DNA of 46,115 nt, from NCBI RefSeq assembly GCF_012911005.2, contig NZ_WTVS01000047.1:1-46115 (forward strand), read 5' to 3'. Source of the stretch: Aromatoleum toluolicum. Lineage in GTDB: Bacteria > Pseudomonadota > Gammaproteobacteria > Burkholderiales > Rhodocyclaceae. Under the pieces are notes generated by a model, which saw nothing but the letters and a program-made list of their open reading frames with translations, did no database searches and had not been told where the DNA came from. Every line of letters starts with the position of its first letter. Positions within the stretch are counted from its first letter, which is position 1. Both the position numbers and the translations under genes were made by a program. Below, piece by piece: positions 1,026 to 22,347 of the stretch.

Positions 1026-2705
1026 TCATTCGGGGAAATCCTCCTCGAAGAATTCCATCTCGCCCCGGGCGGCTTCGCCGCGCGCCTCTTCGGCCTTGCG
1101 TAGTTCCACGCGGCGGATCTTGCCCGAGATGGTCTTCGGCAGGTCCGAGAATTCGAGGCGGCGGATGCGCTTGTACGGGGCGAGCTTGTCGCGCGTGAAG
1201 GCGAAGATGTCCTTCGCGAGTTCCTTCGACGGTTCGAAGCCGGCGGCGAGGATCACGTAGGCCTTCGGCACGGCGAGACGCACCGGGTCCGGGCTCGGTA
1301 CGACGGCAGCTTCGGCCACCGCCCGATGCTCGATCAGGACCGACTCCAGCTCGAAGGGGCTGATGCGGTAGTCGGAGGCCTTGAACACGTCGTCGGCGCG
1401 GCCGACGTAGGTGATGTAGCCCTCTTCGTCGATGCTCGCGACGTCGCCGGTGCGGTAGTGGCCGTCACGCATGACTTCGGCGGTCTTCGCTTCGTCGCCG
1501 GCATAGCCGAGCATCAGGCCGACCGGGCGCTTGGCGAGGACGAGGCTGATCTCGCCTTCCTCGACCGGCTTGCTGTCGGCGTCGAGCAGCGCGATGGTGT
1601 AGCCGGGCAGCGGGCGGCCCATCGAGCCGGGCTTGAGCTTCTGGCCCGGGGTGTTGCCGATCTGGCACGTTGTTTCGGTCTGGCCGAAGCCGTCGCGGAT
1701 CGTGATGCCCCAGGCCTTCTTCACCTGCTCGATGACCTCGGGGTTGAGCGGCTCGCCCGCGCCGATGAGTTCGCGCAGCTTGGTCTTCACCGACGCGAGA
1801 TCCTGCTGGATCAGCATGCGCCACACGGTCGGGGGCGCGCACATCGTCGTGATCTCGTACTTCACGAGCACGTCGAGCAGCGCCTTGGCGTTGAAGCGGT
1901 TGTAGTTGTGCAGGAACACGCAGGCGCCGGCGTTCCACGGCGCGAAGAAGCAGCTCCACGCGTGCTTGGCCCAGCCCGGCGAGCTGATGTTCATGTGACG
2001 GTCGTTGGGCTGCAGGCCGATCCAGTACATCGTCGACAGGTGGCCGACCGGGTAGGACTGGTGGCTGTGCTGGACGAGCTTCGGCTTGGAGGTCGTGCCG
2101 GACGTGAAGTACAGCAGCAGCGGGTCGGTGACCTTGGTGACGCCGGACGGGGCGAACTCGGGCGAAGCCTGGTAGGCGTCCTCGAAGGAGAGCCAGCCGG
2201 CGGTCGCGCCGCCGACGCTGATGCGCGTGTAGTTGCCGGCAAGGTCGGCGAACTTGTCGGTGTGGGCCTTGCCGATGACGACGTGCTTGACCTGGCCGCG
2301 CTCGAGGCGGTCGGCCAGGTCGTCCGGGGTCAGCAGCGTGGTCGCGGGGATCACGACGGCGCCGAGCTTGATCGCGGCGAGCATGGTTTCCCACAGCGGC
2401 ACTTCGTTGCCGAGCATGATCAGGATGCGGTCGCCGCGCGCGACGCCCTGCTCGCGCAGCCAGTTCGCGACGCGATTCGAGCGTGCGGACATCTCGGCGA
2501 AGGAGAGCTTCGATTCGCGGCCGTCTTCCTCGACGATCCACAGCGCGGGCTGCTCGTTGCCCTTGGCCATCGAATCGAAGTAGTCGAGCGCCCAATTGAA
2601 CTCGGTGAGCTGCGGCCATTGGAATCCGGCGTACGCGGTGGCGTAGTCGGTGCGGTTGGCCAGCAGGAAATCGCGTGCGGCAAGAAAACTTGATAAATCA
2701 CTCAT
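1026..2705 (-). CDS. Acyl-CoA synthetase (AMP-forming, medium-chain type)
   Basis: A 559-residue ANL-superfamily ligase that activates a carboxylic acid to its CoA thioester through an acyl-adenylate. Visible motifs are the phosphate loop YFTSGTTSKPK (about residue 205), the A5 motif DGFGQTETT, YRTGDVA and GRADDVFKASDYRISPFE (hinge), and the C-terminal PKTISGKIRR with the catalytic lysine. Length is normal and there is no signal peptide, so it is cytoplasmic. A strong AGGAGG site precedes the ATG. It is the last gene after the ABC copy 1 operon and SulP. In this island it would activate the fatty acid made from the alkyl sulfate for beta-oxidation. Substrate chain length cannot be read from sequence. 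A TGCA-N5-TGCA box lies 30 bp upstream. Confidence 0.85.
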   Translation of the reverse strand: MSDLSSFLAARDFLLANRTDYATAYAGFQWPQLTEFNWALDYFDSMAKGNEQPALWIVEEDGRESKLSFAEMSARSNRVANWLREQGVARGDRILIMLGNEVPLWETMLAAIKLGAVVIPATTLLTPDDLADRLERGQVKHVVIGKAHTDKFADLAGNYTRISVGGATAGWLSFEDAYQASPEFAPSGVTKVTDPLLLYFTSGTTSKPKLVQHSHQSYPVGHLSTMYWIGLQPNDRHMNISSPGWAKHAWSCFFAPWNAGACVFLHNYNRFNAKALLDVLVKYEITTMCAPPTVWRMLIQQDLASVKTKLRELIGAGEPLNPEVIEQVKKAWGITIRDGFGQTETTCQIGNTPGQKLKPGSMGRPLPGYTIALLDADSKPVEEGEISLVLAKRPVGLMLGYAGDEAKTAEVMRDGHYRTGDVASIDEEGYITYVGRADDVFKASDYRISPFELESVLIEHRAVAEAAVVPSPDPVRLAVPKAYVILAAGFEPSKELAKDIFAFTRDKLAPYKRIRRLEFSDLPKTISGKIRRVELRKAEEARGEAARGEMEFFEEDFPE

Positions 2706-2734
2706 ATTGAAACCTCCTATAACTCAAGCGACGT

Positions 2735-2747
2735 TGCAAACGTTGCA
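2735..2747. promoter_or_regulatory. TGCA-N5-TGCA box upstream of the acyl-CoA synthetase
   Basis: The sequence TGCAAACGTTGCA fits the T-N11-A LysR consensus. It repeats the TGCA-N5-TGCA pattern found at the channel and ABC promoters. It lies 30 bp before the start codon and lacks the TTACGTC partner, so it may be a lone or secondary site. Confidence 0.4.
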
Positions 2748-2839
2748 TCGCAGTTCATTATTCGCCAACAGTCCTTGCGACAGGTCGGACCGACGTCGCT
2801 ACGGTCGATCCATTCGAGCGCGGAGAGAACCAATTCGTA

Positions 2840-4540
2840 CTACACTGCAATGGATCGGCCAGTTATTTGGCAATTGGCGAGCAACTCAATGGCATCCTGG
2901 TCGGTCCGGAAGAATGCGTCATCGCCGAACTTTTCGTGCAGACCGCTCCTCTCCAACACTTCGCGCACCTGCTTCTTTACAGCGCAAAGAGTTAGTCTGA
3001 TACCTTGCGCACTGAGATTGCGGTGAAGGCTAGAAAGCATTTCAACGCCCGTGGCATCTATGTCGTTGTTCCCCGAACAGCATAGGAGCACGATTTCTAC
3101 CTTGGGGGTTTCATACACACGCTCCGTTACGAACCGCTCAAGAACCGGCGCAGTGACGTATGTAAGTGCCGCATCCATCCTCACCGCGATAACGTGAGGT
3201 GCAATCGGGGGGAGATGATGCACCGCACGGTCGCGAAAGCTCCCGTCAGGATGTACACCCACTTCCACGATACGCGGCCGGGCGCGTCGGTACAGATAGG
3301 AGAGCAGTGAAGCAGCGACGCCCGCGGCCACGCCCCAATGCAGGTTAGGCACCGTCGTAAGCGTTACGACGAACGTTAGGACGGCAATGACCCCGTCGTC
3401 ACAGGAAGTGCGCCAGAGGCGATAAAACACGCCCCAATTGACCAGGCTGAATACAGGAACAATTATGATCGCCGCCAATACGGCACGCGGCAGATGGTAC
3501 AGATAAGGCGTCCCCCAAAGCAGGCAGGCTGCCACGCCTGCGGTCGCGAAAATGGTGGAGTAACCGCTCGTGGCCCCTACATATGCATTCAGGGCCGAGC
3601 GCGAAAATGAGCCGCTGACCGGAAATGCGCCGCTCGCCCCACTGATGATCTTTGCGAGCCCTTGGCCGATCAACTCTTGGTTCTCATTCCATTGTTCGCC
3701 CCGCCTGCGAGCAAGTGCACGACAACTCGACATCGCCTCCGTAAAGCTGATGAGGGCCACGATAATCGCAGCCGGTAGCAATCTTAGGTGCTGTTCCGGT
3801 GACAGGACGGGCAGCCGCACGATAGACGGAAAGCCGCCCGAGATGGAACCCACAACTTCGCCGCCGTGAGCCGAGAAGTCAATTGCTGCGCTTAAAGCGA
3901 TTGCCGCGAGCGTGGTCAAGAGCACACCGGGCCAGCGTGGCGCATACCGCTTTGTGATTATTAGGATCAGGACCGCAGAAATACCAAATGCCGCAGTTTC
4001 GCTGACAAGTTTCGGTGTCTCACGTAGCGCGAGCAGAGTGCGCCCAGCTAAACCGGCGTCGAATCCTCCAGGAATACCGACGAGCGCAGGCAATTGCGAG
4101 AACAGGATGATGAGTGCGGCCGCATTGATAAAGCCGGTAATGACCGGAAAACCGACAAAATTAGCGATGCTCCCCAGCCGGAGTGCTCCGAGAATGCACT
4201 GAATTGCCCCTGAATAAACGGCGAGCCAGATCGCAAGCGCCACCCACTCCGGCTCTTGGGGCGAGGCGAGCGCCGTCAGGGAGGCGAAAGTCAAAAGACT
4301 TGTAAGCGCGACGGGCCCCACGGCAAGGAGCGACGACGAGCCCCACAACGTGCCGACAAGCGCGGGCAGAAGCGCCGCATAGAGGCCGGTCTCCGGCGGC
4401 ATGCCCGCAAGCGTTGCGTAGGCGAGCGACTGCGGGATCAGCACCAGTGCAACGCTCAAACCAGCCCAAGCATCCTTTCTCAGGCTATCGAACGCCGGGC
4501 GTGGCCAGCCGAGGAAGGGAAAGAAGCGCGACCAAACCAT
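2840..4540 (-). CDS. SulP-family anion (sulfate) transporter with STAS domain
   Basis: A polytopic inner-membrane protein. The first transmembrane region carries the SulP signature (DAWAGLSVALVLIPQSLAYA, GMPPETGLYAALLPALVGTL), followed by about ten more hydrophobic segments. The C-terminal cytoplasmic STAS domain includes NDIDATGVEMLSSLH. Bacterial SulP proteins move sulfate, bicarbonate or dicarboxylates. Next to a sulfatase importer operon, handling of released sulfate is the best guess, but direction and substrate are not shown. The start chosen is the ATG before VWSRFFPFLGW, matching family N-termini. An ATG at 4655-4657 would add 39 atypical residues. It follows ABC copy 1 after about 310 bp containing a hairpin. 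Confidence 0.8.
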   Translation of the reverse strand: MVWSRFFPFLGWPRPAFDSLRKDAWAGLSVALVLIPQSLAYATLAGMPPETGLYAALLPALVGTLWGSSSLLAVGPVALTSLLTFASLTALASPQEPEWVALAIWLAVYSGAIQCILGALRLGSIANFVGFPVITGFINAAALIILFSQLPALVGIPGGFDAGLAGRTLLALRETPKLVSETAAFGISAVLILIITKRYAPRWPGVLLTTLAAIALSAAIDFSAHGGEVVGSISGGFPSIVRLPVLSPEQHLRLLPAAIIVALISFTEAMSSCRALARRRGEQWNENQELIGQGLAKIISGASGAFPVSGSFSRSALNAYVGATSGYSTIFATAGVAACLLWGTPYLYHLPRAVLAAIIIVPVFSLVNWGVFYRLWRTSCDDGVIAVLTFVVTLTTVPNLHWGVAAGVAASLLSYLYRRARPRIVEVGVHPDGSFRDRAVHHLPPIAPHVIAVRMDAALTYVTAPVLERFVTERVYETPKVEIVLLCCSGNNDIDATGVEMLSSLHRNLSAQGIRLTLCAVKKQVREVLERSGLHEKFGDDAFFRTDQDAIELLANCQITGRSIAV

Positions 4541-4674
4541 TTTGAGAAACTCGATAATCAACAAGTGCCACTGCTGTGGCCAACTTGGCCATGAGCGCAG
4601 TCGACTCAAACGATGACTGACCAACGCTCGCCGAAGAATCGCGGCGTTTGATCGCATCCCCAGGAACTAACTGC

Positions 4675-4705
4675 GGCGTCGCCCGCTGACGACATGGGCG
4701 ACGCC
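4675..4705 (-). terminator. Strong hairpin between the ABC copy 1 operon and SulP
   Basis: Perfect 10-bp arms GGCGTCGCCC / GGGCGACGCC with an 11-base loop. There is no T-run on either side, so it may be an attenuating or mRNA-stabilising stem rather than a classical terminator. Confidence 0.4.
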
Positions 4706-4854
4706 GAGGCTCGGCGGAAATTCCGCAGGAGTACTTCGATAGTTCGAAACAAATTGAATGCTCGATGGCTTCGCCGAGGGCGCCAGAAGGATTATCCCGA
4801 GTCCTGTTGGCGGCAGCATCCCGACCTATGCGCCACACGGCGAGATATTGGTGC

Positions 4855-5634
4855 TTACTGCCAGCGGAGCAGGTGACGTTCCAGGCGGGTCATGCCGCTG
4901 GTAGCCGCCATGCCGAGCCAGGCGAGCACGACCAAGAGAGCCATCACGCCGTTCATGTTGAAGGTCGAAGCGAGGTAGGCGAGTTGCTGCCCCAGACCGT
5001 GTTCGGCCGCGAGGATCTCGCCGGCAATGACCCCGAGTAGTGCATAGATCAGCCCGAGCCGCAGGCCGGAGAAGATCACCGGAATGGCCCCGGGCAGCGT
5101 CACCAGAAAGAATTTCTGCCTCGGGCTGGCTCCCAGTGTGTCCGTGAGCACGATATGGTCCTGGTTGATGCCGCGCATGCCGGCCACCGTGCTGGACAGC
5201 ACGATGAAGAACGTCAGGGTGAAACCCATCGCAATCTTCGAACCGATCCCCAACCCGAACCACAGGATGAACAGCGGTGCCAATGCGATACGCGGCAAGG
5301 CGTTGAGCGCAGAGAAGTACGGATCGAGGAAACGTTCCAGGCGAGGAAAGATCACGAAGATCAATCCGGTCAGGACCGCGGCCAGACTGCCCGAAATGAA
5401 GGCAAGCAGGGTGCTCATGACCGACCAGCCCAGTTCGATCCAGAGATGGGTTCCCTGGACGAAGTTCGCCCAAAGAAACGAAATAATTCCGGCTGGATTG
5501 CCGAAAAATGTCGGATCGAGCAGTCCCATTCGGGCCGCCCACTCCCACGTAGCCAGCAGCACCGCGAGAAATCCGGCGTGAGAGGCGAAACCCATCGCCA
5601 GCTTCTTCCATCCTTGAGCGCCACTCGCGTTCAT
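4855..5634 (-). CDS. ABC transporter permease, NitT/TauT (SsuC/TauC) type, copy 1
   Basis: A 259-residue inner-membrane permease with about six hydrophobic segments. The cytoplasmic EAA-like loop (TLGASPRQKFFLVTLPGAIP) docks to the ATPase. The family imports taurine, alkanesulfonates, nitrate and similar anions. The sulfatase operon makes alkyl sulfate esters the likely cargo here. The start is the ATG overlapping the ATPase stop in an ATGA junction, which indicates translational coupling. It is nearly identical to the copy at 19383-20162, differing at six residues (for example FVQGTHLW against FVLGIQLW) that could alter substrate choice. Confidence 0.88.
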   Translation of the reverse strand: MNASGAQGWKKLAMGFASHAGFLAVLLATWEWAARMGLLDPTFFGNPAGIISFLWANFVQGTHLWIELGWSVMSTLLAFISGSLAAVLTGLIFVIFPRLERFLDPYFSALNALPRIALAPLFILWFGLGIGSKIAMGFTLTFFIVLSSTVAGMRGINQDHIVLTDTLGASPRQKFFLVTLPGAIPVIFSGLRLGLIYALLGVIAGEILAAEHGLGQQLAYLASTFNMNGVMALLVVLAWLGMAATSGMTRLERHLLRWQ

Positions 5635-6452
5635 TTCTTGTACCCCTGCTCCAGCATTTCCCAAATATGCGCGTACAGCTCGTGGTAGACGTGGTCCTTC
5701 TGCAACTCGCGCACCGAGCGTGGCCGTTTGATTGGAATCTCGACGTCCGTGACGATGCGGCCAGGGCGAGCCCCCATGACGACCACGCGATCGGAGATGG
5801 CGATCGCTTCGCCGAGATCGTGGGTAATGAACACGACCGTGCGCCTTTCCTCCTGCCACAGGTCCACCAAGAGCTCTTCGAGCTGGAGCTTCGTCTGGGC
5901 ATCGAGGGCGCCGAACGGTTCGTCCATCAATAGAATCGGAGAATCCAGGGCGAAGGTGCGGGCAAGCGCACAACGCTGGCGCATGCCGTGAGACAGTTGT
6001 TTGGGATAAGACTTCTCGAATCCTCCCAGACCGACTCGAACAAGCAGATCCCGCGCACGCTCCCTTCTTCGCTCAGCCGCCACCCCCCGAACCTCCATGC
6101 CGTAGGCCGCGTTCTCCAACGCAGTACGCCAAGGCAGGAGACTGTCGCGCGCCAGCATGTAGGCAATCCCGTGATCGCCCAGACGCGGCTCGCGCCCTTG
6201 TATGCGCACCGTGCCGGAATGGGGGACGTGAATAAGGCCGGCGAGCAGGTTCAGCATCGTCGTCTTGCCGCAGCCGCTCGGCCCGACTATCGACAGGAAC
6301 TGCCCGTGCGGAACAGTGAGCGACACCCGATCGATGGTCGGCGTGCCGGCCGTAAACGAAAGCGTCAGATCCCTGATCTCGATCGCAGCCTGTTGCGCAA
6401 CAACGTTTCCCGTCAGGGGCAAGTCAATGGATCGCACAGCGCTTTCCTCCAT
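5631..6452 (-). CDS. ABC transporter ATP-binding protein, NitT/TauT (SsuB/TauB) type, copy 1
   Basis: The cytoplasmic ATPase that drives the importer. Motifs: Walker A GPSGCGKTT, Q-loop region, signature LSHGMRQR as in SsuB/TauB proteins, Walker B ILLMDEPFGALD and switch histidine VFITHD. All are intact. The ATG at 6450-6452 is chosen; a TTG one codon earlier is possible. It begins four bases after the binding-protein stop and overlaps the permease start by four bases. It differs from the second copy at seven positions, five of them in the first 28 residues. Confidence 0.9.
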   Translation of the reverse strand: MEESAVRSIDLPLTGNVVAQQAAIEIRDLTLSFTAGTPTIDRVSLTVPHGQFLSIVGPSGCGKTTMLNLLAGLIHVPHSGTVRIQGREPRLGDHGIAYMLARDSLLPWRTALENAAYGMEVRGVAAERRRERARDLLVRVGLGGFEKSYPKQLSHGMRQRCALARTFALDSPILLMDEPFGALDAQTKLQLEELLVDLWQEERRTVVFITHDLGEAIAISDRVVVMGARPGRIVTDVEIPIKRPRSVRELQKDHVYHELYAHIWEMLEQGYKK

Positions 6453-6455
6453 CAA

Positions 6456-7457
6456 TTAGCGAAAACGCGCCGTATTGAACGCCTCGGGAACCTGGCCGGT
6501 GGAATGCAGATAATCTGCCGCCGCCTGAATTGCCTGAACTGCCTGAGGGTTGAGTTCCGCTTGCCAGGAGGTCAGGAAGCGCTTGACGCTGCTTCTGAGG
6601 ATGGCATCGCCCTGAGGGTGCTCGATGCGAAAGTTCTTCCGCGCGATCTCGTAGACTTGCTCGAAATTCGCCGGATCCTGGATAAACCGCGCCGAGTCGC
6701 GCACGGCGCCCTGGAATGCCTCGACGAGACGCGGATCATAATCCCGCCGCACGACATAAACACCGCCTGCACCATTGAGTCGGGTGATTTCGGCCGGCCC
6801 CTCGCCGTTGAAGGGCGCCACTGCGATGCGACACGTCTTCAGGACATCGCAGAATCCATCCAGCGGGATAAAGCCCATGACTGCATCGATCTGCTTGTTC
6901 GCCAGCGCCGGATACGCGGTATTGGGAGAACCGACGGCAACGAAAGTGACATCCGAGTCACCGAGGCCGGCCGCCTTCAGCATGGTCTTGTACTGGAACT
7001 CGGGCCCGGCGCCACGCGAAGTCACACCGATCTTCTTGCCCTTCAGCGCGTGCAAGACGGCCTTGTAGTCACCGCCGGCGGGCAGCTCGATATGATTGCC
7101 CACGGCCAGGAAAAAGACACTCGAACGAAATGCGGTTCCGATGACCCGGATGTCCGCCCCCTTCAGCGCGGATTGAATGGCGACCTCCGGCGGCGGCAAT
7201 GCGATGTCGATTCCCTTGGAAAGCAGCGTCTGGATCCCCAGCGGCGCCGCCGGAATGAGCTTCAGATCACACTCGATCCCGTGATCCCGGCAAAACCCCT
7301 TCTCCACGGCCACCTGCGTCAGCAGATTGATCGGCCCCGGGTAGTTCTGAATCACGACCTTGGTCAGATTGCTGCCGCCCCCGGTTTGGGCGAACACGGC
7401 CATACTTACCGCCCAAATACCTGCACCTACCAAGGCGCATACGCGTCCACGGGTCAT
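6456..7457 (-). CDS. ABC transporter periplasmic substrate-binding protein, NitT/TauT type, copy 1
   Basis: A 333-residue protein with a cleavable signal peptide (positive start MTRGR, hydrophobic core, cleavage near VFAQ). It has the two-lobed SsuA/NMT1 layout, including IDIALPPPEVAIQ and KGKKIGVTSRGAGPEFQ. It captures the ligand in the periplasm and delivers it to the permease. It is the first gene of its operon, behind a strong GGAGGAG ribosome site and an operator-bearing promoter. Ten residues differ from the second copy. The ligand is not predictable from sequence alone; an alkyl sulfate is inferred from context. Confidence 0.88.
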   Translation of the reverse strand: MTRGRVCALVGAGIWAVSMAVFAQTGGGSNLTKVVIQNYPGPINLLTQVAVEKGFCRDHGIECDLKLIPAAPLGIQTLLSKGIDIALPPPEVAIQSALKGADIRVIGTAFRSSVFFLAVGNHIELPAGGDYKAVLHALKGKKIGVTSRGAGPEFQYKTMLKAAGLGDSDVTFVAVGSPNTAYPALANKQIDAVMGFIPLDGFCDVLKTCRIAVAPFNGEGPAEITRLNGAGGVYVVRRDYDPRLVEAFQGAVRDSARFIQDPANFEQVYEIARKNFRIEHPQGDAILRSSVKRFLTSWQAELNPQAVQAIQAAADYLHSTGQVPEAFNTARFR

Positions 7458-7537
7458 GCTTGTCTCCTCCTGGTCTCGATACGTCGTTATGGGCCGTTTC
7501 CCAGCCTCTTGAACCCAAGGTTAGTCACTACCTAAAC

Positions 7538-7582
7538 TTACGTCCAGTGCAAAATTTTTCGATTGTTAATGCACGTTTTGCA
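7538..7582 (-). promoter_or_regulatory. LysR-type operator and promoter of ABC operon copy 1
   Basis: TTACGTCCAGTGCA (7538-7551) is followed after 18 bp by TGCA-N5-TGCA (7570-7582). The same spacing occurs at 22066 and 10942. Read on the minus strand, the distal T-N11-A box precedes a TTGCAC-like -35, with only a weak -10 (TAGTGA) after 16 bp. That suits an activator-dependent promoter. It lies 81-125 bp before the start codon. Confidence 0.6.
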
Positions 7583-7751: not shown

Positions 7752-8399
7752 TCAGGCCTCGATCAGACCGGAGCGCACTGCGATCAAGGCGAGTTCGGCG
7801 GCATTCGCGGCATTGAGCTTTTGCTTGATGTGGTAGAGGTGGGTGCCGACGGTGCTGGGGCTGAGCTTGTGGGTGTCGGCGACCTGCGTCACGGAATTGC
7901 CTTTCGCGAGTTCGAGGAAGACGGCGAATTCCTTGTCCGTGAGCGCGTCGGCGGGGTCGTTGCTGCCGCCGAACTGGGCGAGCGCGAGCTGCGGCGCGAG
8001 CTCGGGGTCGACGTAGCGCTGGCCGCGCGCGACCTGGGCGACGGCGCGCACCAGTTCCTGCGGCTGGGCGCGCTTCGAGAGGTAGCCGGTGGCCCCGGAG
8101 CGCAGTGCGCGCATCGGGATCTGTGAGTCCTCGTGTGCCGACAGCATCAGCACGCGGGCGCCGGGGTGGTGCGCGCGCAGGCGGTCCAGCGCGCACAGGC
8201 CGCCCAGCCCGGGCATGGTCACATCCATCACCAGGGCGTCGGGCTGATGCTCGCCGAACGCGGCGATCGCGGCCTCGCCGCTGTCGGCCTCGGCAACGAT
8301 GGTGGCGCCGGCGCCTTCGAGCAGCATGCGGAAGCCCATGCGGACGATGGCGTGGTCATCGGCGAGGACGAGGCGGAGGTTTTCAAGAATGCTGGCCAT
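7752..8399 (-). CDS. LuxR-family response regulator (NarL/FixJ type)
   Basis: 215 residues. The N-terminal receiver domain has the acidic pair near VLADDH, the phospho-acceptor aspartate in LVMDVTMPG, and the conserved threonine/serine and lysine positions (LMLSAHED, YLSKRA). The C-terminal LuxR helix-turn-helix (LTDKEFAVFLELAKGNSVTQ, LSPSTVGTHLYHIKQKL) binds DNA. The ATG sits inside the end of the kinase gene, so the two are co-translated. Similar pairs such as MoxXY control PQQ-dependent alcohol dehydrogenases in other bacteria. Control of the island's alcohol dehydrogenase is therefore plausible but unproven. GC is markedly higher than in the neighbouring channel and LysR genes. Confidence 0.85.
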   Translation of the reverse strand: MASILENLRLVLADDHAIVRMGFRMLLEGAGATIVAEADSGEAAIAAFGEHQPDALVMDVTMPGLGGLCALDRLRAHHPGARVLMLSAHEDSQIPMRALRSGATGYLSKRAQPQELVRAVAQVARGQRYVDPELAPQLALAQFGGSNDPADALTDKEFAVFLELAKGNSVTQVADTHKLSPSTVGTHLYHIKQKLNAANAAELALIAVRSGLIEA

Positions 8400-13736: not shown

Positions 13737-13914
13737 TGCTGTGTCTCCATTAGAAGTTGGTTTAGTAAAATTGGATGTCGCTCTTGTGCCTCGAATATCG
13801 CTAGTCATCGTGAAAGCTCAGCCGCGCCGGGCAAGGCGACTGGGAAACTGAACGGCGATCGCGGCGTCCGCGGAAGCGCCGGCTTGGGTATTGACGCTTG
13901 AAGGGCCTGCCTTA

Positions 13915-14349
13915 TTATTCCGACAGACTGACACCCGAGCCCCCCATTTCCTTCGGGACGTCTTTCATCTTCGGCAGCCCGTCCTTTATGCGTAGCTTCG
14001 ACTCCTCGTAGTGGACATGGACGCCGGCGTTGTACGGAAAGTCGGGAATGACCGCCGCGTACACGTCGGTGAGTCCCATCCCGGGATGCTCGGTGAAGAC
14101 GTGGCCTCCACACGTTTTGCACCACTTGCGATAGCTGTGTGGCGTCTTGTTGTAGGTGGCTAGGTTGTCTGCTCCCCGCGTAATCTGTACTGCTTCGGGT
14201 TTCCATAAGGTGAAGGCGTTGACAGGCGCTGCTGACCAGTGTCGACACGACTCACAATGGCAATAACCCATCGCGACTGGCTCACCGCTGACCGTGAAAT
14301 GAACCGCGCCGCAAAAGCAGCTGCCTTTGTAAACTCGTCCTATGTTCAT
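13915..14349 (-). CDS. GFA-family zinc-binding protein
   Basis: 144 residues with the cysteine motifs of the glutathione-dependent formaldehyde-activating (GFA/CENP-V) family: GSCFCGAV, CHCESCR and WCKTCGG, binding two structural/catalytic zincs. Most members have no proven reaction; some react with thiol-aldehyde adducts. Its place between the deleted acyl-CoA synthetase and the aldehyde dehydrogenase suggests a role around aldehyde handling, but this is only inferred. Cytoplasmic, no signal peptide. Confidence 0.8.
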   Translation of the reverse strand: MNIGRVYKGSCFCGAVHFTVSGEPVAMGYCHCESCRHWSAAPVNAFTLWKPEAVQITRGADNLATYNKTPHSYRKWCKTCGGHVFTEHPGMGLTDVYAAVIPDFPYNAGVHVHYEESKLRIKDGLPKMKDVPKEMGGSGVSLSE

Positions 14350-14981: not shown

Positions 14982-15112
14982 GAGGTTCCCCCTACAAATT
15001 TCCGGTTGCCGGGCGCATGTCGACGTTTGCTAGCCGGCACACGCCCCCGCGAAGAAAGAAAAATTGTCGAGAAGGCGGCGAGCAAATGTCCCGCGCTGCC
15101 CTTAGACACCGA

Positions 15113-17185
15113 TCACTTTGGCGGTCGAATTGCGTCGGCAGTACTCAGGATGAAGGCCTTAATCTTCTGGACCTCCTCCATGCTGAGTTTCCCCGTGAAG
15201 TCCGGCATTCCGCGTGGCACGTAAGGACCGTTGAAGACGAATCGATCGAGATTCGCGATCACTTCTGGGGCCGAGTAGCCGAGGTTCGGCAAGATCCCAC
15301 CCTTATCGACGCCTGGCACCCCATGACAGAATGCGCAGTTCATCACGTACAGTCCCGTGCCCTCGGCAACATGGTCGGAGTTGTATTTAACGCCCGAAAC
15401 CAAACGTTTCCGCTGGAATTCCGTGAATGCCGGCATCGGAGCCTTGCCGCCGAGGGCGAATGTGTAGACAGTTCCGGGGGTGTTGCGCTCGGACGCCCGC
15501 TGGGTCTGGCCGTACACACCGCCCCAGCCGACTGCCACCGATATGTACTGGCGACCATCAACCTCGTAGCTGATGGGGGCCGCAAGTACCCCGGTCCCCA
15601 TTGGCGAGGACCACAATTCCCTGCCGTTGCTCGCATCAAAGGCAATCAGGCGGGCGTCCGCAGTTCCCTGGAACACGACCTTACCCGCCGTCACGAGCGT
15701 CCCACCGTTCCACGGCGAAACATGCTCCTTGCGCCATACCTCTTTCTGGTTGACCGGATCCCACGCAATCAGGCGGCCGAATGGGGTGCTCGTAGGGGGC
15801 CGCGGATTAACCTCCATCGCCAGGTTCCAGCCAATGCCCGCCATCGCCTGACCCGGCTGCGCCTTGTTGTAGGCCCACTTCTTGTCCTCGGCCAATACCA
15901 GCGGAATGTTCTGCGCAGGAAAGTAGGCAAGTCCGGTCTGCGGGCTGAAGGACATCGAGTGCCAGTTGTGTCCACCGAAAGGTCCGGGTATGGCGTCAAA
16001 CGGCTGGTCAGGGGAACGCGCCTCCGGCAGCTCGATTGGGCGTCCGTTCTTGTCGTATCCGCTGGCCCAGTTCACAGGAACAAAGTTTTTCGCCGAAATG
16101 AAGGACCCATCGGTGCGGTCGATCACGAAAAAGAACCCGTTCTTCGGCGCGTGCATGACGACTTTGCGCACCTTGCCATCGATCTTGAGATCCGCCAGGA
16201 TTAAGTCCTGCGTCGAGGTGTAGTCCCAGTTGTCCGCCGGAGTTTCCTGGTAATGCCAGACATATTTTCCGGTGTCGGGATCTAGGGCCACGATCGAAGC
16301 GACGTAAAGATTATCTCCGCCGCCCGGACTGCGCCGGCGGTGCGCCCATGGCGACGCGTTGCCGGTACCGATGTACATGAGGTTCAATTCCGGATCGAAC
16401 ACCATCGAGTTCCACACGGTGCCGCCGCCGCCTGCCTCCCAATACTTGCCGGCTGGATCCCAAGTCTTGGCCGCTTTCGCCATCGACTCGTCCTCGAATG
16501 GTTTGGAGGGATCGCCGGGGACCACGAACCAGCGCCACGCCTGCTTGCCGGTCTTGGCATCGTAGGCGGTAATGTATCCGCGCACCCCATACTCGGCACC
16601 GCTGTTTCCGATGATGACCTTGTTCTTGATGACTCGCGGCGCACCCGTGATGGTATAAGGGCGTGAGCGATCGGTGATCGTGTCCTGTTCCCAAGTCTTA
16701 GTGCCGGTCTTCGCGTCGATCGCAATCAGACGACCGTCGAGCGAGCCGACGTATACCAAGCCGTCATGAACGGCCACGCCTCGATTGACCACATCGCAAC
16801 ATGCATTCTTTGCGTAGCTGCGCGGCACTGCCGGGTCATAGGTCCATACGCGTTCTCCGGTGCGCACATCGATCGCATGCACCACGCTCCAAGGAGCGGA
16901 AACGTACATCACACCGTTGGCGACGATGGGCGTCGCCTCCACTCCTCGGGTCGATTCGAGGTTGTAGGACCACACAAGGCCCATGTCCTTGACATTGTCA
17001 GTCGTAATTTCCTTCAATGGACTGAAGCGCGTACCCGCGTTGTCATAGCCATGAACCAGCCATTCGGCTACTGGTTGCGCCGCCCATGCCACGCCGGACG
17101 CCAGTGCAAGCCAACCCACCCCGAAGGCGGCGCGCAACCACCGCCGGACGAACCGGCCACTTCGCTTGTCGTCTAATTGATCCAT
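15113..17185 (-). CDS. Quinohaemoprotein alcohol dehydrogenase (PQQ and cytochrome c)
   Basis: A periplasmic enzyme oxidising primary alcohols to aldehydes with PQQ and passing electrons to an attached haem. It has a signal peptide (RRWLRAAFGVGWLALASGVA, cleavage near AWAA). An eight-bladed propeller carries the vicinal disulfide NACCDVVN, the PQQ-contact region and tryptophan-docking repeats. The C-terminal domain has the haem motif CAFCH and a later methionine (GMPDF). Size fits type II enzymes. The ATG with AAGGAG upstream is chosen; an earlier ATG adds eight residues. It follows the sulfatase gene and would oxidise the alcohol released from alkyl sulfates. PQQ biosynthesis genes are not in the window. 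Confidence 0.9.
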   Translation of the reverse strand: MDQLDDKRSGRFVRRWLRAAFGVGWLALASGVAWAAQPVAEWLVHGYDNAGTRFSPLKEITTDNVKDMGLVWSYNLESTRGVEATPIVANGVMYVSAPWSVVHAIDVRTGERVWTYDPAVPRSYAKNACCDVVNRGVAVHDGLVYVGSLDGRLIAIDAKTGTKTWEQDTITDRSRPYTITGAPRVIKNKVIIGNSGAEYGVRGYITAYDAKTGKQAWRWFVVPGDPSKPFEDESMAKAAKTWDPAGKYWEAGGGGTVWNSMVFDPELNLMYIGTGNASPWAHRRRSPGGGDNLYVASIVALDPDTGKYVWHYQETPADNWDYTSTQDLILADLKIDGKVRKVVMHAPKNGFFFVIDRTDGSFISAKNFVPVNWASGYDKNGRPIELPEARSPDQPFDAIPGPFGGHNWHSMSFSPQTGLAYFPAQNIPLVLAEDKKWAYNKAQPGQAMAGIGWNLAMEVNPRPPTSTPFGRLIAWDPVNQKEVWRKEHVSPWNGGTLVTAGKVVFQGTADARLIAFDASNGRELWSSPMGTGVLAAPISYEVDGRQYISVAVGWGGVYGQTQRASERNTPGTVYTFALGGKAPMPAFTEFQRKRLVSGVKYNSDHVAEGTGLYVMNCAFCHGVPGVDKGGILPNLGYSAPEVIANLDRFVFNGPYVPRGMPDFTGKLSMEEVQKIKAFILSTADAIRPPK

Positions 17186-17416
17186 CACGTCTCCTTGTGT
17201 TCTTGTCACGCTCTCGGTCGCCAGGCTGAGCGCCCCGAACGACCGCCGGATTGTTTGGGCCGAGGTGCCTTCAGCCTGAATCCACAGGAGAACTCACATA
17301 CCCCGGGACACAAGACCGTCCGCTCGTCGCCAGACACGCAGCGCTTCGTGAGCACTGCCTGTATCAGTCGCGCCTCCTGGCGAAAGGAGTGCGCGACCGA
17401 CACCGGTGTAGCGCCC

Positions 17417-19342
17417 TTATGGCGTGACGATGTCGAACCAGTAATCGAAGGTATCGAAGAGCGACAGAAGCTCACTCAGTGCTTCAGCCCGTCCTTCGAT
17501 CTGCACCGATCCCGACGCGATCTCGGCATCGAACGTGGTGGTCTCCGCCTGGATCTCGTTGAACACGTGCCGCTTGATCCTCACCGTCGCGTCCGCACGA
17601 TCGCCGAGTTTGGCCGGGGAGTAATTGAGGACGCTGTTTTCGAGTTGTACGACGTACTGTTTGTTGTCGTCGTAAAAATCGAATTTGATCGCAAGCGTCC
17701 TGCCCTCGGCCTTGGGCCCGTTCAAGCGGATCGCCCAGTAATCGAAGATCAATTCTTCGGGCATGGCCCGCAGATAGTCCATGCTCGCGAACTTGAGCGC
17801 CTTGTGCGTGCGCTCCACCCCTTCGCGCAGTTCCATCGCCCCCGTCAGATAGAAGTTGCGCCACGGACCGGATTCGGCCTGGTAACCGAGCTGTTCCAGC
17901 GCCGCCGCCTGAAGTTCCCGTGCAACCCTGTTGTCGGGATCTGCAAAGACCAGATGGTTGACCACCTGTGCGACCCAGCGGTATTCGCCCTTTTCGAAGT
18001 AGTCGCGCGCCTTCGAGAGCAGCGCATCGGCGCCACCCATGAACTCCACGTAGCGCTTGCCTGCCTCGACCGGTGGCAGCGGATGCAGGTTCGCCGGGTT
18101 CGCGTCGAACCAGCCCAGATAGCGTTGATAGACCGCTTTCGAGTTGTGATTGACGGTGCCGTAATAGCCGCGAATCGACCAGCATTGATCGAGACTCTTC
18201 GGCAGCGCCATCATCTCGGCAATCTCGACCATCGTATAGCCGTGATTGGCAAGCCGAAGGGTCTGATCGTGAATATAGCGGTAAACATCGCGCTGCTTCT
18301 TCAAGTACTCGACGATATCCTCTCGTCCCCAACGCGGCCAGTGATGGCTGATGAACATCACGTCGGTCTCGGCACCGAAGAGCTCGATCGCCTCGTTGAT
18401 ATAAGTGCTCCACGCTCGCGCGTCGCGGATCTTCGCGCCACGCAGCGTATAGAGATTGTGCATGACGGCACACGTATTTTCCGCCATGCACAGTGCCTTG
18501 AACTGCGGAAAATGGAAGTTCATTTCGGCAGGCGCTTCGGTACCGGGCGTGAGTTGGAACACGATTTCCACACCGTCGATCAGCAGCGTCTGGCCCGTTC
18601 TCGTGATATCCACCGTGGGCAGAATCAGTGTCGACTCACCCGCAGCCAAGTGCTTGCCCAGGCCCGCATCGACAAAGCCACGTTCCCCGCTGGGTAGCAG
18701 GTTGCCAAACATGTACGACGCGCGGCGCCCCATCGCATTGCCCGCATAGACGTTTTCGCTGATCGTTTCCTCGGTGAAGTGCTCGGGCGCGATGATCTTG
18801 ACGTGGTCTGCCGCCACGTCCGCTTCCGACACAATTCCCTTCGCGCCGCCAAAATGGTCGATATGGCTGTGGGTGTAGAGGACTGCCTTGATCTTCCGTT
18901 CGCCCAGGAAGCTTGTCACCAGCTCAAGCGCGGCGTGCGCCACCTCGAGCGTGCAGCAAGGGTCGATGACGATCCAGCCCGTATCCCCTTCGACGAAAGT
19001 GATGTTTGAGATGTCATAGCCGCGGACCTGGTAGATGCGCTCGCAGACCTTGAAGAGGCCGTGGTGCGTGTTCAGCTGGGCTTGACGCCAGAGGCTCGGA
19101 TTCACCGTTTCCGGGGCCGGCGCGTCCGGAGCGAGGAAAGCGTATTGGTCCATGTCCCAGACCACTTCGCCTTTGTCATTCCGAATGATCGTGCTGTCGA
19201 GCTTGCCAATGAAGCCGCGCTTGGCGCGTTCGAAATCTGAGCGGTCGTCGGGCGGCAACGAGTCGCGTAAACGCCGGTTTGCCTCGATCGTATGATGCGT
19301 TGCGCAGGCGCAGCCGGACCCCTGGGATTTGATATTTCCCAT
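17417..19342 (-). CDS. Alkylsulfatase, metallo-beta-lactamase type (SdsA1-like)
   Basis: 641 residues with the three-part layout of SdsA1/BDS1-type alkylsulfatases. First is a metallo-beta-lactamase domain with the zinc site THSHIDHFGG and the acidic ligand regions TEAPAEMN and MAENT. Next is the alkylsulfatase dimerisation domain (SHHWPRWGREDI, GYYGTVNHN). Last is a sterol-carrier-like C-terminal domain. The enzyme cleaves alkyl sulfate esters such as dodecyl sulfate to alcohol and sulfate. Unlike exported relatives it shows no signal peptide (starts MGNIKSQGSGCACATHH), so it is probably cytoplasmic, which fits an import system. AGGAGG lies eight bases before the ATG. It starts 40 bp after the permease of ABC copy 2, so they likely share a transcript. 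Confidence 0.9.
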   Translation of the reverse strand: MGNIKSQGSGCACATHHTIEANRRLRDSLPPDDRSDFERAKRGFIGKLDSTIIRNDKGEVVWDMDQYAFLAPDAPAPETVNPSLWRQAQLNTHHGLFKVCERIYQVRGYDISNITFVEGDTGWIVIDPCCTLEVAHAALELVTSFLGERKIKAVLYTHSHIDHFGGAKGIVSEADVAADHVKIIAPEHFTEETISENVYAGNAMGRRASYMFGNLLPSGERGFVDAGLGKHLAAGESTLILPTVDITRTGQTLLIDGVEIVFQLTPGTEAPAEMNFHFPQFKALCMAENTCAVMHNLYTLRGAKIRDARAWSTYINEAIELFGAETDVMFISHHWPRWGREDIVEYLKKQRDVYRYIHDQTLRLANHGYTMVEIAEMMALPKSLDQCWSIRGYYGTVNHNSKAVYQRYLGWFDANPANLHPLPPVEAGKRYVEFMGGADALLSKARDYFEKGEYRWVAQVVNHLVFADPDNRVARELQAAALEQLGYQAESGPWRNFYLTGAMELREGVERTHKALKFASMDYLRAMPEELIFDYWAIRLNGPKAEGRTLAIKFDFYDDNKQYVVQLENSVLNYSPAKLGDRADATVRIKRHVFNEIQAETTTFDAEIASGSVQIEGRAEALSELLSLFDTFDYWFDIVTP

Positions 19343-19382
19343 TTTACTTCCTCCTGTGAGAAAACGAGCTAGATGCTGGTGT

Positions 19383-20162
19383 CTATTGCCAGCGGAGCAG
19401 ATGGTGTTCCAGGCGGGTCATGCCGCTGGTAGCGGCCATGCCGAGCCAGGCGAGCACGACGAGAAGAGCCATCACGCCGTTCATGTTGAAGGTCGAAGCG
19501 AGGTAGGCGAGTTGCTGCCCCAGACCGTGTTCGGCCGCGAGGATCTCGCCGGCAATGACCCCGAGTAGTGCATAGATCAGCCCGAGCCGCAGGCCGGAGA
19601 AGATCACCGGAATGGCCCCGGGCAGCGTCACCAGAAAGAATTTCTGCCTCGGGCTGGCTCCCAGTGTGTCCGTGAGCACGATATGGTCCTGGTTGATGCC
19701 GCGCATGCCGGCCACCGTGCTGGACAGCACGATGAAGAACGTCAGGGTGAAACCCATCGCAATCTTCGAACCGATCCCCAACCCGAACCACAGGATGAAC
19801 AGCGGTGCCAAAGCGATACGCGGCAAGGCGTTGAGTGCAGAGAAATACGGATCGAGAAAACGTTCCAGACGAGGAAAGATCACGAAGATCAATCCTGTCA
19901 GGACCGCGGCCAGACTGCCTGAGATAAAAGCAATCAGGGTGCTCATGACCGACCAGCCCAGCTCGATCCAGAGCTGGATTCCCAGGACGAAGTTCGCCCA
20001 AAGAAACGAAATAATTCCGGCTGGATTGCCGAAAAATGTCGGATCGAGCAGTCCCATTCGGGCCGCCCACTCCCACGTAGCCAGCAACACCGCGAGAAAA
20101 CCGGCGTGAGAGGCGAAACCCATCGCCAGTTTCTTCCATCCTTGAGCGCCACTCACGTTCAT
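19383..20162 (-). CDS. ABC transporter permease, NitT/TauT type, copy 2
   Basis: 259 residues, nearly the same as copy 1, with the same ATGA overlap to the ATPase. Differing residues are A3V, three in the second hydrophobic region (LGIQ for QGTH), L to I nearby, and R to H near the C-terminus. The protein forms the membrane channel of the importer. It ends 40 bp before the sulfatase start, so imported ester could be cleaved at once in the cytoplasm. Confidence 0.88.
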   Translation of the reverse strand: MNVSGAQGWKKLAMGFASHAGFLAVLLATWEWAARMGLLDPTFFGNPAGIISFLWANFVLGIQLWIELGWSVMSTLIAFISGSLAAVLTGLIFVIFPRLERFLDPYFSALNALPRIALAPLFILWFGLGIGSKIAMGFTLTFFIVLSSTVAGMRGINQDHIVLTDTLGASPRQKFFLVTLPGAIPVIFSGLRLGLIYALLGVIAGEILAAEHGLGQQLAYLASTFNMNGVMALLVVLAWLGMAATSGMTRLEHHLLRWQ

Positions 20163-20980
20163 TTCTTGTACCCCTGCTCCAGCATTTCCCAAATATGCGC
20201 GTACAGCTCGTGGTAGACGTGGTCCTTCTGCAACTCGCGCACCGAGCGTGGCCGTTTGATTGGAATCTCGACGTCCGTGACGATGCGGCCAGGGCGGGCC
20301 CCCATGACGACCACGCGATCAGAGATGGCGATCGCCTCGCCCAGATCGTGGGTAATGAACACGACCGTGCGCCTTTCCTCCTGCCACAAGTCCACCAGGA
20401 GTTCCTCGAGCTGGAGCTTCGTCTGGGCATCAAGGGCGCCGAACGGCTCGTCCATCAACAAGATCGGCGAATCCAGGGCGAAGGTGCGGGCAAGCGCACA
20501 ACGCTGGCGCATGCCGTGAGAAAGTTGTTTGGGATAAGACTTCTCGAATCCCCCCAGACCGACTCGAACCAGCAGATCCCGCGCACGCTCCCTTCTTTGC
20601 TCGGCCGCCACCCCCCGAACCTCCATCCCGTAGGCCGCGTTCTCCAACGTCGTTCGCCAGGGAAGGAGACTGTCGCGCGCCAGCATGTAGGCAATCCCGT
20701 GATCGCCCAGACGCGGTTCGCGTCCTTGTATCCGCACCGTGCCGGAATGGGGGACGTGAATAAGGCCGGCGAGCAGGTTCAGCATCGTCGTCTTGCCGCA
20801 GCCGCTCGGCCCGACTATCGACAGGAACTGCCCGTGCGGAACAGTGAGCGACACCCGATCGATGGTCGGCGTGCCGGCCGTAAATGAAAGCGTCAGATCC
20901 TTGATTTCGATCGCTGCCTGTTGCGCAACGACGTTTGCCGTCAGGGGCAAGTCCATGGGTCGCACTGCGTTTTCCTCCAT
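20159..20980 (-). CDS. ABC transporter ATP-binding protein, NitT/TauT type, copy 2
   Basis: 273 residues with all ATPase motifs intact (GPSGCGKTT, LSHGMRQR, ILLMDEPFGALD). It carries seven changes from copy 1, clustered at the N-terminus (N5, P9, M10, A16, K28 by copy 1 numbering from the TTG) plus T and Q in WRTTLE and AAEQRRE. Since none is in a motif, both copies should work and might exchange partners. Confidence 0.9.
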   Translation of the reverse strand: MEENAVRPMDLPLTANVVAQQAAIEIKDLTLSFTAGTPTIDRVSLTVPHGQFLSIVGPSGCGKTTMLNLLAGLIHVPHSGTVRIQGREPRLGDHGIAYMLARDSLLPWRTTLENAAYGMEVRGVAAEQRRERARDLLVRVGLGGFEKSYPKQLSHGMRQRCALARTFALDSPILLMDEPFGALDAQTKLQLEELLVDLWQEERRTVVFITHDLGEAIAISDRVVVMGARPGRIVTDVEIPIKRPRSVRELQKDHVYHELYAHIWEMLEQGYKK

Positions 20981-20983
20981 CAA

Positions 20984-21985
20984 TTAGCGAAAACGCGCCG
21001 TATTAAATGTCTCGGGAACCTGGCCGGTGGAATGCAGATAATCTGCCGCAGCCTGAACTGCCTGAACGGCCTGGGGATTGAGTTCCGATTGCCAGGAGGT
21101 CAGGAAGCGCTTGACGGTACTTCGCAGGATGGCATCGCCCTGGGGGTGCTCGATACGAAAGTTCTTCCGCGCGATCTCGTAGACTTGCTCGAAATTCGCC
21201 GGATCCTGGATGAAACGCGTGGAGTCGCGCACGGCGCCCTGGAATGCCTCGACGAGACGCGGGTCATAATCCCGCCGCACGACATAAATCCCACCTGCGC
21301 CATTGAGTCGGGTGATCTCGGCCGGCCCCTCCCCGTTGAAAGGCGCCACGGCGATGCGACACGTCTTCAGGACATCGCAGAATCCATCCAGCGGGATAAA
21401 GCCCATGACCGCATCGACCTGCTTGTTCGCCAGCGCCGGATACGCGGTATTGGGCGAACCGACGGCAACGAAGGTGACATCGGAGTCACCCAGGCCGACC
21501 GCCTTCAGCATGGTCTTGTACTGGAACTCTGGCCCGGCGCCACGCGAAGTCACACCGATCTTCTTGCCCTTCAACGCGTTCAGGACGGCCTTGTAGTCAC
21601 CGCCGGCGGGCAGCTCGATATGATTGCCCACGGCCAGGAAAAAGACACTCGAACGAAATGCGGTTCCGATGACCCGGATGTCCGCCCCTTTCAGCGCCCC
21701 TTGGATGGCGACCTCCGGCGGCGGCAACGCGATGTCGATTCCCTTGGAAAGCAGCGTCTGGATCCCCAGCGGCGCCGCCGGAATGAGCTTCAGATCACAC
21801 TCGATCCCGTGATCCCGGCAAAACCCCTTCTCCACGGCCACCTGCGTCAGCAGATTGATCGGCCCCGGGTAGTTCTGAATCACGACCTTGGTCAGATTGC
21901 TGCCGCCCCCGGTTTGGGCGAACACGGCCATACTTACCGCCCAAATACCTGCACCTACCAAGGCGCATACGCGTCCACGGGTCAT
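20984..21985 (-). CDS. ABC transporter periplasmic substrate-binding protein, NitT/TauT type, copy 2
   Basis: 333 residues with the same signal peptide as copy 1 and ten substitutions, all outside the first 90 residues (for example IQGALKG, VLNALKG, NKQVDAV, GGIYVV, PETFNT). The unchanged N-terminal lobe and changed C-terminal half are compatible with slight tuning of ligand preference or with drift. First gene of the long minus-strand run that continues into the sulfatase, alcohol dehydrogenase and aldehyde dehydrogenase genes. Confidence 0.88.
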   Translation of the reverse strand: MTRGRVCALVGAGIWAVSMAVFAQTGGGSNLTKVVIQNYPGPINLLTQVAVEKGFCRDHGIECDLKLIPAAPLGIQTLLSKGIDIALPPPEVAIQGALKGADIRVIGTAFRSSVFFLAVGNHIELPAGGDYKAVLNALKGKKIGVTSRGAGPEFQYKTMLKAVGLGDSDVTFVAVGSPNTAYPALANKQVDAVMGFIPLDGFCDVLKTCRIAVAPFNGEGPAEITRLNGAGGIYVVRRDYDPRLVEAFQGAVRDSTRFIQDPANFEQVYEIARKNFRIEHPQGDAILRSTVKRFLTSWQSELNPQAVQAVQAAADYLHSTGQVPETFNTARFR

Positions 21986-22065
21986 GCTTGTCTCCTCCTG
22001 GTCTCGATACGTCGTTATGGGCCGTTTCCCAGCCTCTTGAATCCAAGGTTAGTCACTACCTAAAC

Positions 22066-22114
22066 TTACGTCTATTGCAAAATTTTCATGATTTTTATGC
22101 ATGCATTGCATGCA
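22066..22114 (-). promoter_or_regulatory. LysR-type operator and promoter of ABC operon copy 2
   Basis: TTACGTCTATTGCA (22066-22079) is followed after 18 bp by two interlocked TGCA-N5-TGCA boxes (22098-22110 and 22102-22114). The distal box lies outside the duplicated unit and differs in sequence from that of copy 1, yet keeps the same spacing. Selection for this layout is therefore likely. Confidence 0.6.
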
Positions 22115-22343: not shown

Positions 22344-22347
22344 AACG

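What the first reader, a model, noticed from the sequence alone, without database searches (positions are those of the whole stretch)
1026..22114. Complete putative alkyl-sulfate ester catabolic module with dedicated uptake
Alkylsulfatase, PQQ/haem alcohol dehydrogenase, aldehyde dehydrogenase and acyl-CoA synthetase make a linear route R-O-SO3 to alcohol to aldehyde to acid to acyl-CoA. Around them are an outer-membrane channel, NitT/TauT importers, a SulP anion transporter and a LysR regulator. The enzyme families are established; a known alkyl sulfate degradation system usually has an exported sulfatase. A system built on import and intracellular cleavage seems unusual.
Basis: partly seen in the sequence, partly recalled or inferred. 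Interest (0 to 1): 0.8.

Follow-up and report, generated by a model that had tools for sequence, protein, structure and literature searches.

The report
Mobile alkyl-sulfate import and breakdown island
A bacterium appears to carry, on a patchwork mobile island, genes to import detergent-like alkyl sulfates, cut off the sulfate inside the cell and oxidise the rest; the chemistry is a known kind, and the unusual part is where the cut seems to happen.

Summary
The genes are there. The sulfatase (17417-19342) is a type III metallo-beta-lactamase alkylsulfatase with three domains, conserved metal-ligand positions and 50.6% identity to SlfS. It lacks a signal peptide and lies 40 bp after a SsuA/TauC-type ABC importer. 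A quinohaemoprotein alcohol dehydrogenase and an aldehyde dehydrogenase follow.

Corrections. (1) The ligase in the sulfatase operon is a 171-residue deletion remnant; the intact acyl-CoA synthetase lies in another unit. (2) The two importers are near-identical copies (95.6% DNA). (3) The alcohol dehydrogenase looks exported, so the route crosses the membrane. (4) The block is mosaic and sits at a tRNA-Arg integration hotspot; of 16 same-genus genomes, none has a close alcohol dehydrogenase or binding protein, one a distant sulfatase.

The four-step chain is known (SLF module), and sulfate-ester importers occur in ats/sft clusters. Joining them around a signal-less type III sulfatase is a new variant. 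One relative (G178) independently pairs a related importer with a signal-less sulfatase; another (G615) has the importer without one. Signal-less homologues are common: 35 of 91 by my own rule, 12 of them actinobacterial. Substrate, transport direction and cell location are inferred.

The parts
17417..19342 (-). signal-less type III (metallo-beta-lactamase) alkylsulfatase, 641 aa
   Evidence: Pfam Lactamase_B + Alkyl_sulf_dimr + Alkyl_sulf_C; PDB matches PSdsA, SdsA1, YjcS, Pisa1; ligand positions; no hydrophobic N-terminus
20984..21985 (-). importer copy B: SsuA-family substrate-binding protein with signal peptide
   Evidence: NMT1; SsuA_fam below its cut-off; N-terminus
20159..20983 (-). importer copy B: ABC ATPase
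19383..20162 (-). importer copy B: TauC/SsuC-like permease (start taken at an internal ATG)
   Evidence: 6 residue differences from copy A; copy A matched
15113..17209 (-). quinohaemoprotein alcohol dehydrogenase with probable signal peptide and C-terminal cytochrome c domain
   Evidence: best PDB match 1kb0; pqqC elsewhere in the genome
14466..14981 (-). remnant of an acyl-CoA ligase: short N-terminal piece in frame with the C-terminal domain, adenylation core missing
13915..14349 (-). GFA-domain protein, role unknown
   Evidence: no NCBIfam match at E <= 1e-8
12228..13808 (-). aldehyde dehydrogenase, nearest StyD models but below their cut-offs; no signal peptide
11203..12090 (+). LysR-type regulator, divergent from the outer-membrane protein gene
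9928..10845 (-). outer-membrane PF13557 (Phenol_MetA_deg) protein
8383..9768 (-). sensor histidine kinase, nearest UhpB/NarQ models, below cut-offs
7752..8402 (-). response regulator with LuxR-type DNA-binding domain (start approximate)
6456..7457 (-). importer copy A: substrate-binding protein
5631..6455 (-). importer copy A: ABC ATPase
4855..5634 (-). importer copy A: permease
2840..4657 (-). SulP-family anion transporter with STAS domain; sulfate exit is a guess
   Evidence: below the NCBIfam sulP cut-off
1026..2705 (-). intact acyl-CoA synthetase, short/medium-chain type by nearest solved structures
4837..7558 (.). duplicated 2.7 kb importer unit, 95.6% identical to 19364-22086
45463..45539 (-). 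tRNA-Arg(ccg), integration site
24427..24472 (.). attachment-site copy of the tRNA-Arg end (46 of 46 bases)
332..384 (.). decayed att-like sequence near the left edge of the module
22715..22766 (.). decayed att-like sequence near the right edge of the module

Best explanation
A horizontally acquired, mosaic gene island for using alkyl sulfates as carbon (and sulfur). The ester crosses the outer membrane (PF13557 protein, inferred), is bound by the SsuA-like protein and imported by the ABC transporter (inferred), and is hydrolysed in the cytoplasm by a type III alkylsulfatase (enzyme class shown by sequence, location inferred from the missing signal). Sulfate leaves through SulP (guess). The alcohol diffuses to the periplasm and is oxidised by the quinohaemoprotein ADH (class shown, export signal read from sequence); the aldehyde is oxidised in the cytoplasm by the ALDH, and the acid is activated by the separate short/medium-chain acyl-CoA synthetase, because the operon's own ligase is a remnant (shown). 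Short- to medium-chain alkyl sulfates are the likeliest substrates (inference).
For: Domains and metal-ligand positions H158, H160, D162, H163, E269, E288, H333, which fit the motif in PMC3346939 and align with SdsA1 without gaps there. No signal peptide: AGGAGG just before the ATG, and no hydrophobic stretch in the protein start or the 25 in-frame codons above. Importer-sulfatase gap 40 bp, same strand. G178 (L059): importer kin (permease 61%, ATPase 64%, binding protein 41%) lie divergent from a signal-less sulfatase (50%) whose gene overlaps a GMC oxidoreductase gene by 4 bp; a PF00884 sulfatase, an SDR and an AMP-binding ligase are near. L012: FadL-type protein, sulfatase, GntR regulator, NMT1-type ABC importer and SulP within 16 kb. 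Rhodococcus plasmid L037: signal-less sulfatase (60%), ALDH (51%) and a ligase 60% identical to the remnant's C-domain over 121 residues. pqqC in the genome. The only PF14863 gene found in the genome is this one.
Against: G615: importer kin (62/59/42%) sit by an aldehyde dehydrogenase (40%), with no sulfatase in the 27 kb fetched there; its only sulfatase match is signal-bearing and on another contig. ADH-ALDH pairs occur without a sulfatase in 3 of the 5 relatives' ADH loci examined, so that part is a general alcohol cassette. Importers near signal-less sulfatases: 5 of 22 proteobacterial signal-less loci other than the window against 2 of 56 signal-bearing (Fisher p = 0.017), but 3 of 22 against 2 of 56 (p = 0.13) without two weak cases, and 0 of 12 actinobacterial ones; three positives (L012, L059, L060) also seeded the profiles, some loci are short, and L060's importer lies beside a nitrile hydratase gene. 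A periplasmic ADH after a cytoplasmic sulfatase is awkward. The ADH N-terminus (1.62) falls in the unclear band of my signal rule and was settled by eye. Importer, ALDH, SulP and intact synthetase are below the NCBIfam cut-offs.
Confidence: 0.52

Rival explanations
1. The importer carries something else (an aliphatic sulfonate, a carboxylate or an alcohol-derived compound), and the sulfatase acts on esters that enter by another way; the genes are neighbours because the island is a patchwork.
For: G615 has the importer beside an ALDH and no sulfatase nearby. A second importer copy stands away from the sulfatase, beside SulP. GC3 of single genes varies from 0.54 to 0.91.
Against: Copy B is 40 bp upstream of the sulfatase on the same strand; G178 repeats the pairing with a related importer.
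Confidence: 0.25
2. A sulfur-scavenging rather than carbon-catabolic system: sulfate esters are imported and cleaved for sulfur, like ats/sft.
For: SsuA/TauC-type importer and a LysR regulator; the ats/sft cluster joins ABC, LysR and sulfatases (PMC3596284, passages).
Against: ADH and ALDH follow on the same strand, and an acyl-CoA synthetase is present; the LysR scores best to CynR and PcaQ, less to a CysB-family model, all below cut-off.
Confidence: 0.13
3. A decaying island: ligase already deleted, att sites degraded; the pathway no longer works as a unit.
For: Ligase remnant; decayed att cores; the contig starts in an IS5-like transposase fragment.
Against: The sulfatase, ADH, ALDH and synthetase frames are open over the full profiles, and the importer copies differ mainly at third codon positions (80 of 110 coding differences; dN/dS about 0.07-0.11).
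Confidence: 0.1

Closest known systems
SLF module (slfRCHSL) of Psychrobacter plasmid pP62BP1
   Same: Type III sulfatase (50.6% to SlfS), alcohol dehydrogenase, aldehyde dehydrogenase, acyl-CoA ligase; plasmid-borne (PMC10779009 and PMC3346939, passages)
   Different: SlfS has a signal peptide and the authors place SDS hydrolysis outside the cell; SlfH is a GMC enzyme; regulator is AraC type; no importer among the listed genes; ligase gene full length
ats/sft sulfate-ester cluster of Pseudomonas (atsACBR-sftR-atsK-sftP)
   Same: ABC importer of the sulfonate/sulfate-ester class, LysR regulator, outer-membrane component, sulfatases (gene list in PMC3596284, passages)
   Different: Arylsulfatase AtsA and AtsK instead of a type III enzyme (AtsK as a dioxygenase is recalled); no ADH/ALDH in the listed cluster; TonB receptor rather than a PF13557 protein
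SdsA1 / PSdsA / YjcS / Pisa1 alkylsulfatases
   Same: Domains and metal-ligand positions
   Different: No signal peptide in the window protein; it groups with actinobacterial signal-less forms (SH-aLRT 89, not starred)
Rhodococcus sp. AH-ZY2 plasmid cluster (L037)
   Same: One of the two nearest sulfatases; ALDH; ligase related to the remnant
   Different: NDMA-dependent ADH and MFS transporter, no ABC importer in the 17.8 kb shown; annotation only, no experiment seen
Quinohaemoprotein alcohol dehydrogenase, 1kb0 type
   Same: PQQ propeller and cytochrome c domain, aligned over 651 residues
   Different: Nothing distinctive was looked for

Membership tests
Type III (metallo-beta-lactamase) alkylsulfatases | Lactamase_B + dimerisation + SCP2-like C-terminal domains | tested here: met
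Type III (metallo-beta-lactamase) alkylsulfatases | Zn-binding THxHxDHxGG x102 E x18 AE x44 H (PMC3346939) | tested here: met
   T157-G166, E269, E288, H333; met if x18 is counted to the E of AE; the literal pattern missed by one residue, a loosened one matched here and in 82 of 91 homologues
Type III (metallo-beta-lactamase) alkylsulfatases | Activity on alkyl sulfates | not testable with these tools
   needs an enzyme assay
SLF module | Exported sulfatase | tested here: not met
   against the SlfS N-terminus
SLF module | GMC alcohol dehydrogenase in the operon | tested here: not met
   quinohaemoprotein ADH instead
SLF module | Full-length acyl-CoA ligase in the sulfatase operon | tested here: not met
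   remnant; full-length synthetase in another unit
SLF module | AraC-type regulator | tested here: not met
   LysR and a kinase/regulator pair among the ORFs scanned
ats/sft sulfate-ester import cluster | SsuA/TauC-class ABC importer | tested here: met
   family level only, below equivalog cut-offs
ats/sft sulfate-ester import cluster | AtsA arylsulfatase or AtsK | tested here: not met
   no such family among the 20 window ORFs scanned; rest of the genome not searched
ats/sft sulfate-ester import cluster | SftR-type LysR | tested here: inconclusive
   LysR present; best 25 NCBIfam models shown hold no SftR
Quinohaemoprotein alcohol dehydrogenases | PQQ propeller plus C-terminal haem c domain | tested here: met
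Quinohaemoprotein alcohol dehydrogenases | Export signal | tested here: inconclusive
   reads as a signal by eye; hydrophobicity 1.62, in the unclear band of my rule

The most novel reading that the evidence does not exclude
A second, repeatedly assembled design for alkyl-sulfate catabolism in Gram-negative bacteria: type III alkylsulfatases without export signals are coupled to NitT/TauT-class importers (the window, G178, perhaps L012), moving desulfation from outside the cell into the cytoplasm, so that its products are less available to neighbours.
Probability: 0.35. Interest if true: 0.55.

Novelty: new variant of a known kind. Interest (0 to 1): 0.4.

Why it matters
Alkyl sulfates are mass-produced surfactants. 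If cleavage happens inside the cell after active import, the products are largely private, which changes how communities degrade them, and importers of this clade could help to recognise such degraders. The locus also shows how a catabolic route can be stitched together on an island: an alcohol-oxidation cassette, a sulfatase with actinobacterial-like kin, and a transporter that exists in two near-identical copies.

Tried and rejected
Whole-set conservation: no fetched locus has the full gene set. Plasmid origin by DNA match: only the acyl-CoA synthetase matches plasmids over most of its length, at 72-77% in 10 records; three further records match 53-163 bases only. Sec-alkylsulfatase (Pisa1) class: Pisa1 entries are the lowest-scoring solved relatives (627-633 bits against 701 for SdsA1 and 724 for PSdsA). 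That does not settle primary against secondary esters: PMC3920027 (passages) calls SdsAP a sec-alkylsulfatase and PMC6107682 (passages) gives it primary esters, I did not check whether PDB 'PSdsA' is SdsAP, and no specificity residues were tested. Methyl sulfate as substrate, suggested by the GFA domain: thought unlikely because a synthetase and ALDH are present; not tested. Importer kin in viral contigs: none confirmed (a close-relative scan). Importer kin on plasmids: 11 records, best 25% identity over 92%. Contamination: the contig's right end is 94% identical to a same-genus genome. GC3 of multi-gene rows is not frame-true and is not used.

Limits of the signal counts. The rule is a hydrophobicity rule of my own, not SignalP. 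Of 93 loci, L021 (cut short) and L108 fell below the score limit and were left out, as was a second weak match in L152; 91 remained: 50 signal, 36 none, 5 unclear. By eye I moved L093 and the five unclear rows to 'signal'. L012's start, and so its lack of a signal, is uncertain. The 91 were drawn by similarity to the window protein, and of the 170 plasmid records only 3 were among them.

Literature. Searches: among the titles and abstract starts listed, none describes an ABC importer with a signal-less type III sulfatase; most subscription journals are not held. Passages were seen of PMC10779009, PMC3346939, PMC3920027, PMC6107682 and PMC3596284; a word search in PMC3839906 found nothing; other papers were seen as listings only.
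Full report
Setting. The window is a whole 46,115-bp contig (C231) of a 6.16 Mb, 289-contig genome. Its right end is 94% identical to a same-genus genome, so it belongs there.

What is encoded. On the minus strand, in order of transcription: substrate-binding protein, ABC ATPase and permease (copy B); sulfatase; quinohaemoprotein ADH; ligase remnant; GFA protein; ALDH. Then a convergent LysR gene, which is divergent from an outer-membrane PF13557 gene; then histidine kinase, response regulator, importer copy A, SulP and acyl-CoA synthetase. The first three genes abut or overlap by 4 bp; the sulfatase follows after 40 bp; later gaps up to the ALDH are 106-207 bp. Operon structure is inferred, not shown.

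The sulfatase. It has the three domains of type III alkylsulfatases. Solved relatives by score: PSdsA, SdsA1, 7tl5, YjcS, Pisa1. The metal-ligand positions agree with the published motif if its x18 is counted to the E of AE. The start is well placed: AGGAGG just upstream, and neither the protein start nor the 25 in-frame codons above it are hydrophobic. Of 93 loci including the window, 91 proteins were classified by a hydrophobicity rule: 50 with signal, 36 without, 5 unclear. By eye I moved L093 and the five unclear rows to 'signal', giving 56 and 35. Of the 35, 12 are Actinomycetota and 23 Proteobacteria, the window included. On a quick tree, signal status needs 5 changes against about 28 for shuffled labels, so it is inherited in blocks; the window protein falls with two Rhodococcus and two Acidimicrobiaceae proteins (SH-aLRT 89, not starred; its own branch is 0.63).

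The importer. In 200 relatives, binding-protein kin at E <= 1e-50 occur in 2 genomes, the own one and G178; in 369 genomes of the class only in the own one; in 200 of the phylum at E <= 1e-40 in 2, the own one and G615. These samples overlap. In G178 the importer genes lie divergent from a signal-less sulfatase about 0.7 kb away, which is followed by a GMC oxidoreductase, a TctC receptor, a PF00884 sulfatase and an SDR, with an AMP-binding ligase on the other strand: an independent gene set of the same logic with a different alcohol-oxidising enzyme. In G615 the importer lies by an ALDH; no sulfatase was found in the 27 kb fetched (28-55 kb of C44), and a PQQ-domain dehydrogenase is about 8 kb off. 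A third locus, L012, has a less similar importer (29/39%), a FadL-type protein, SulP and a sulfatase whose start is uncertain. Over all loci the enrichment of importers near signal-less sulfatases is suggestive at best (5 of 22 against 2 of 56, p 0.017; or 3 of 22, p 0.13; 0 of 12 in Actinomycetota), and three positives were profile seeds.

Duplication. Copies A and B are 95.6% identical over 2.7 kb, including about 100 bp upstream. Of 110 coding differences 80 are at third positions; dN/dS is about 0.07-0.11. Both copies appear to be kept.

The chain after the sulfatase. ADH: nearest solved protein 1kb0 (1053 bits); its N-terminus reads as a signal peptide by eye, though its hydrophobicity (1.62) is in my unclear band; pqqC is in the genome. 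In relatives the ADH sits next to an ALDH of 55-67% identity in 3 of 5 loci, once also with the outer-membrane gene (L062, L063, L064), with no sulfatase in those stretches: the alcohol cassette exists on its own. The ligase in this operon is a remnant: about 45 N-terminal residues in frame with the C-terminal domain, where the Rhodococcus relative has about 360 residues between. The intact synthetase at 1026-2705 is nearest, among solved proteins, to 4-hydroxybutyrate-CoA ligase, an AMP-binding protein (3etc) and ACSM2A, which suggests short or medium chains. It is only 24-26% identical to SlfL and to the L037 and L059 ligases.

Mobility. A 46-base perfect copy of the tRNA-Arg(ccg) end lies at 24427-24472, with an integrase just inside. 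Decayed att-like cores near 330 and 22715 bracket the module. In G003 the Fic segment (22801-24472) is 94.9% identical and also abuts an att copy, 64 kb from its own tRNA-Arg; G001 and G005 keep pieces of the 22.2-24.5 kb stretch by the tRNA. No module protein matched the five stretches fetched at this site from G001, G002, G003 and G005, of which G003's middle 38 kb was not fetched. Genome-wide, of 16 same-genus genomes, 0 had the ADH (E <= 1e-200), 0 the binding protein (1e-50) and 1 a sulfatase (G006, 46%; 1e-100). Gene GC runs from 0.50 to 0.72, and GC3 of single genes from 0.54 to 0.91: a patchwork.

Known systems. The SLF module gives the same four reaction steps with an exported sulfatase, and was shown by its authors to degrade SDS, also when cloned in E. 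coli (PMC10779009, abstract and passages; PMC3346939, passages). The ats/sft cluster gives importer, LysR and sulfatases (PMC3596284, passages). The present set joins the two ideas and, by the tests above, is a member of neither. PMC6107682 and PMC3920027 (passages) gave background on the enzyme family.

Verdict. Real, and a good functional reading by the first stage, but not complete, not linear in one compartment, and not of a wholly new kind. The testable point is cytoplasmic cleavage after import.

Noticed in passing
24418-45509: A second integrative element between two att copies at tRNA-Arg(ccg): integrase 24577-26136, DUF5906 protein 30039-33287, a match to PADLOC candidate PDC-S42 at 27864-28784, and three large ORFs (35584-42096) with no Pfam match at E <= 1e-5.
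   Followed up: partly
22821-24230: Fic-family protein beside the att site, also present at the same hotspot in genome G003; weak PADLOC PDC-S04/SoFic matches.
   Followed up: partly
1-163: Contig begins in an IS5-family transposase-like fragment, 77% identical to one on a Sulfitobacter plasmid.
   Followed up: no
22160-22630: Remnants that look like a toxin-antitoxin pair (my reading of the sequence, no profile run), partly shared with G001 and G005 next to the same tRNA.
   Followed up: no
L059 1333-17952: G178 locus combines P450, FMO-like protein, ABC importer, signal-less type III sulfatase, GMC oxidoreductase, TctC receptor and a PF00884 sulfatase: possibly a richer sulfate-ester island.
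   Followed up: partly
7752-9768: Histidine kinase/response regulator pair with GC 0.72, above its neighbours (0.61 and 0.50) and equal to the short right flank.
   Followed up: no
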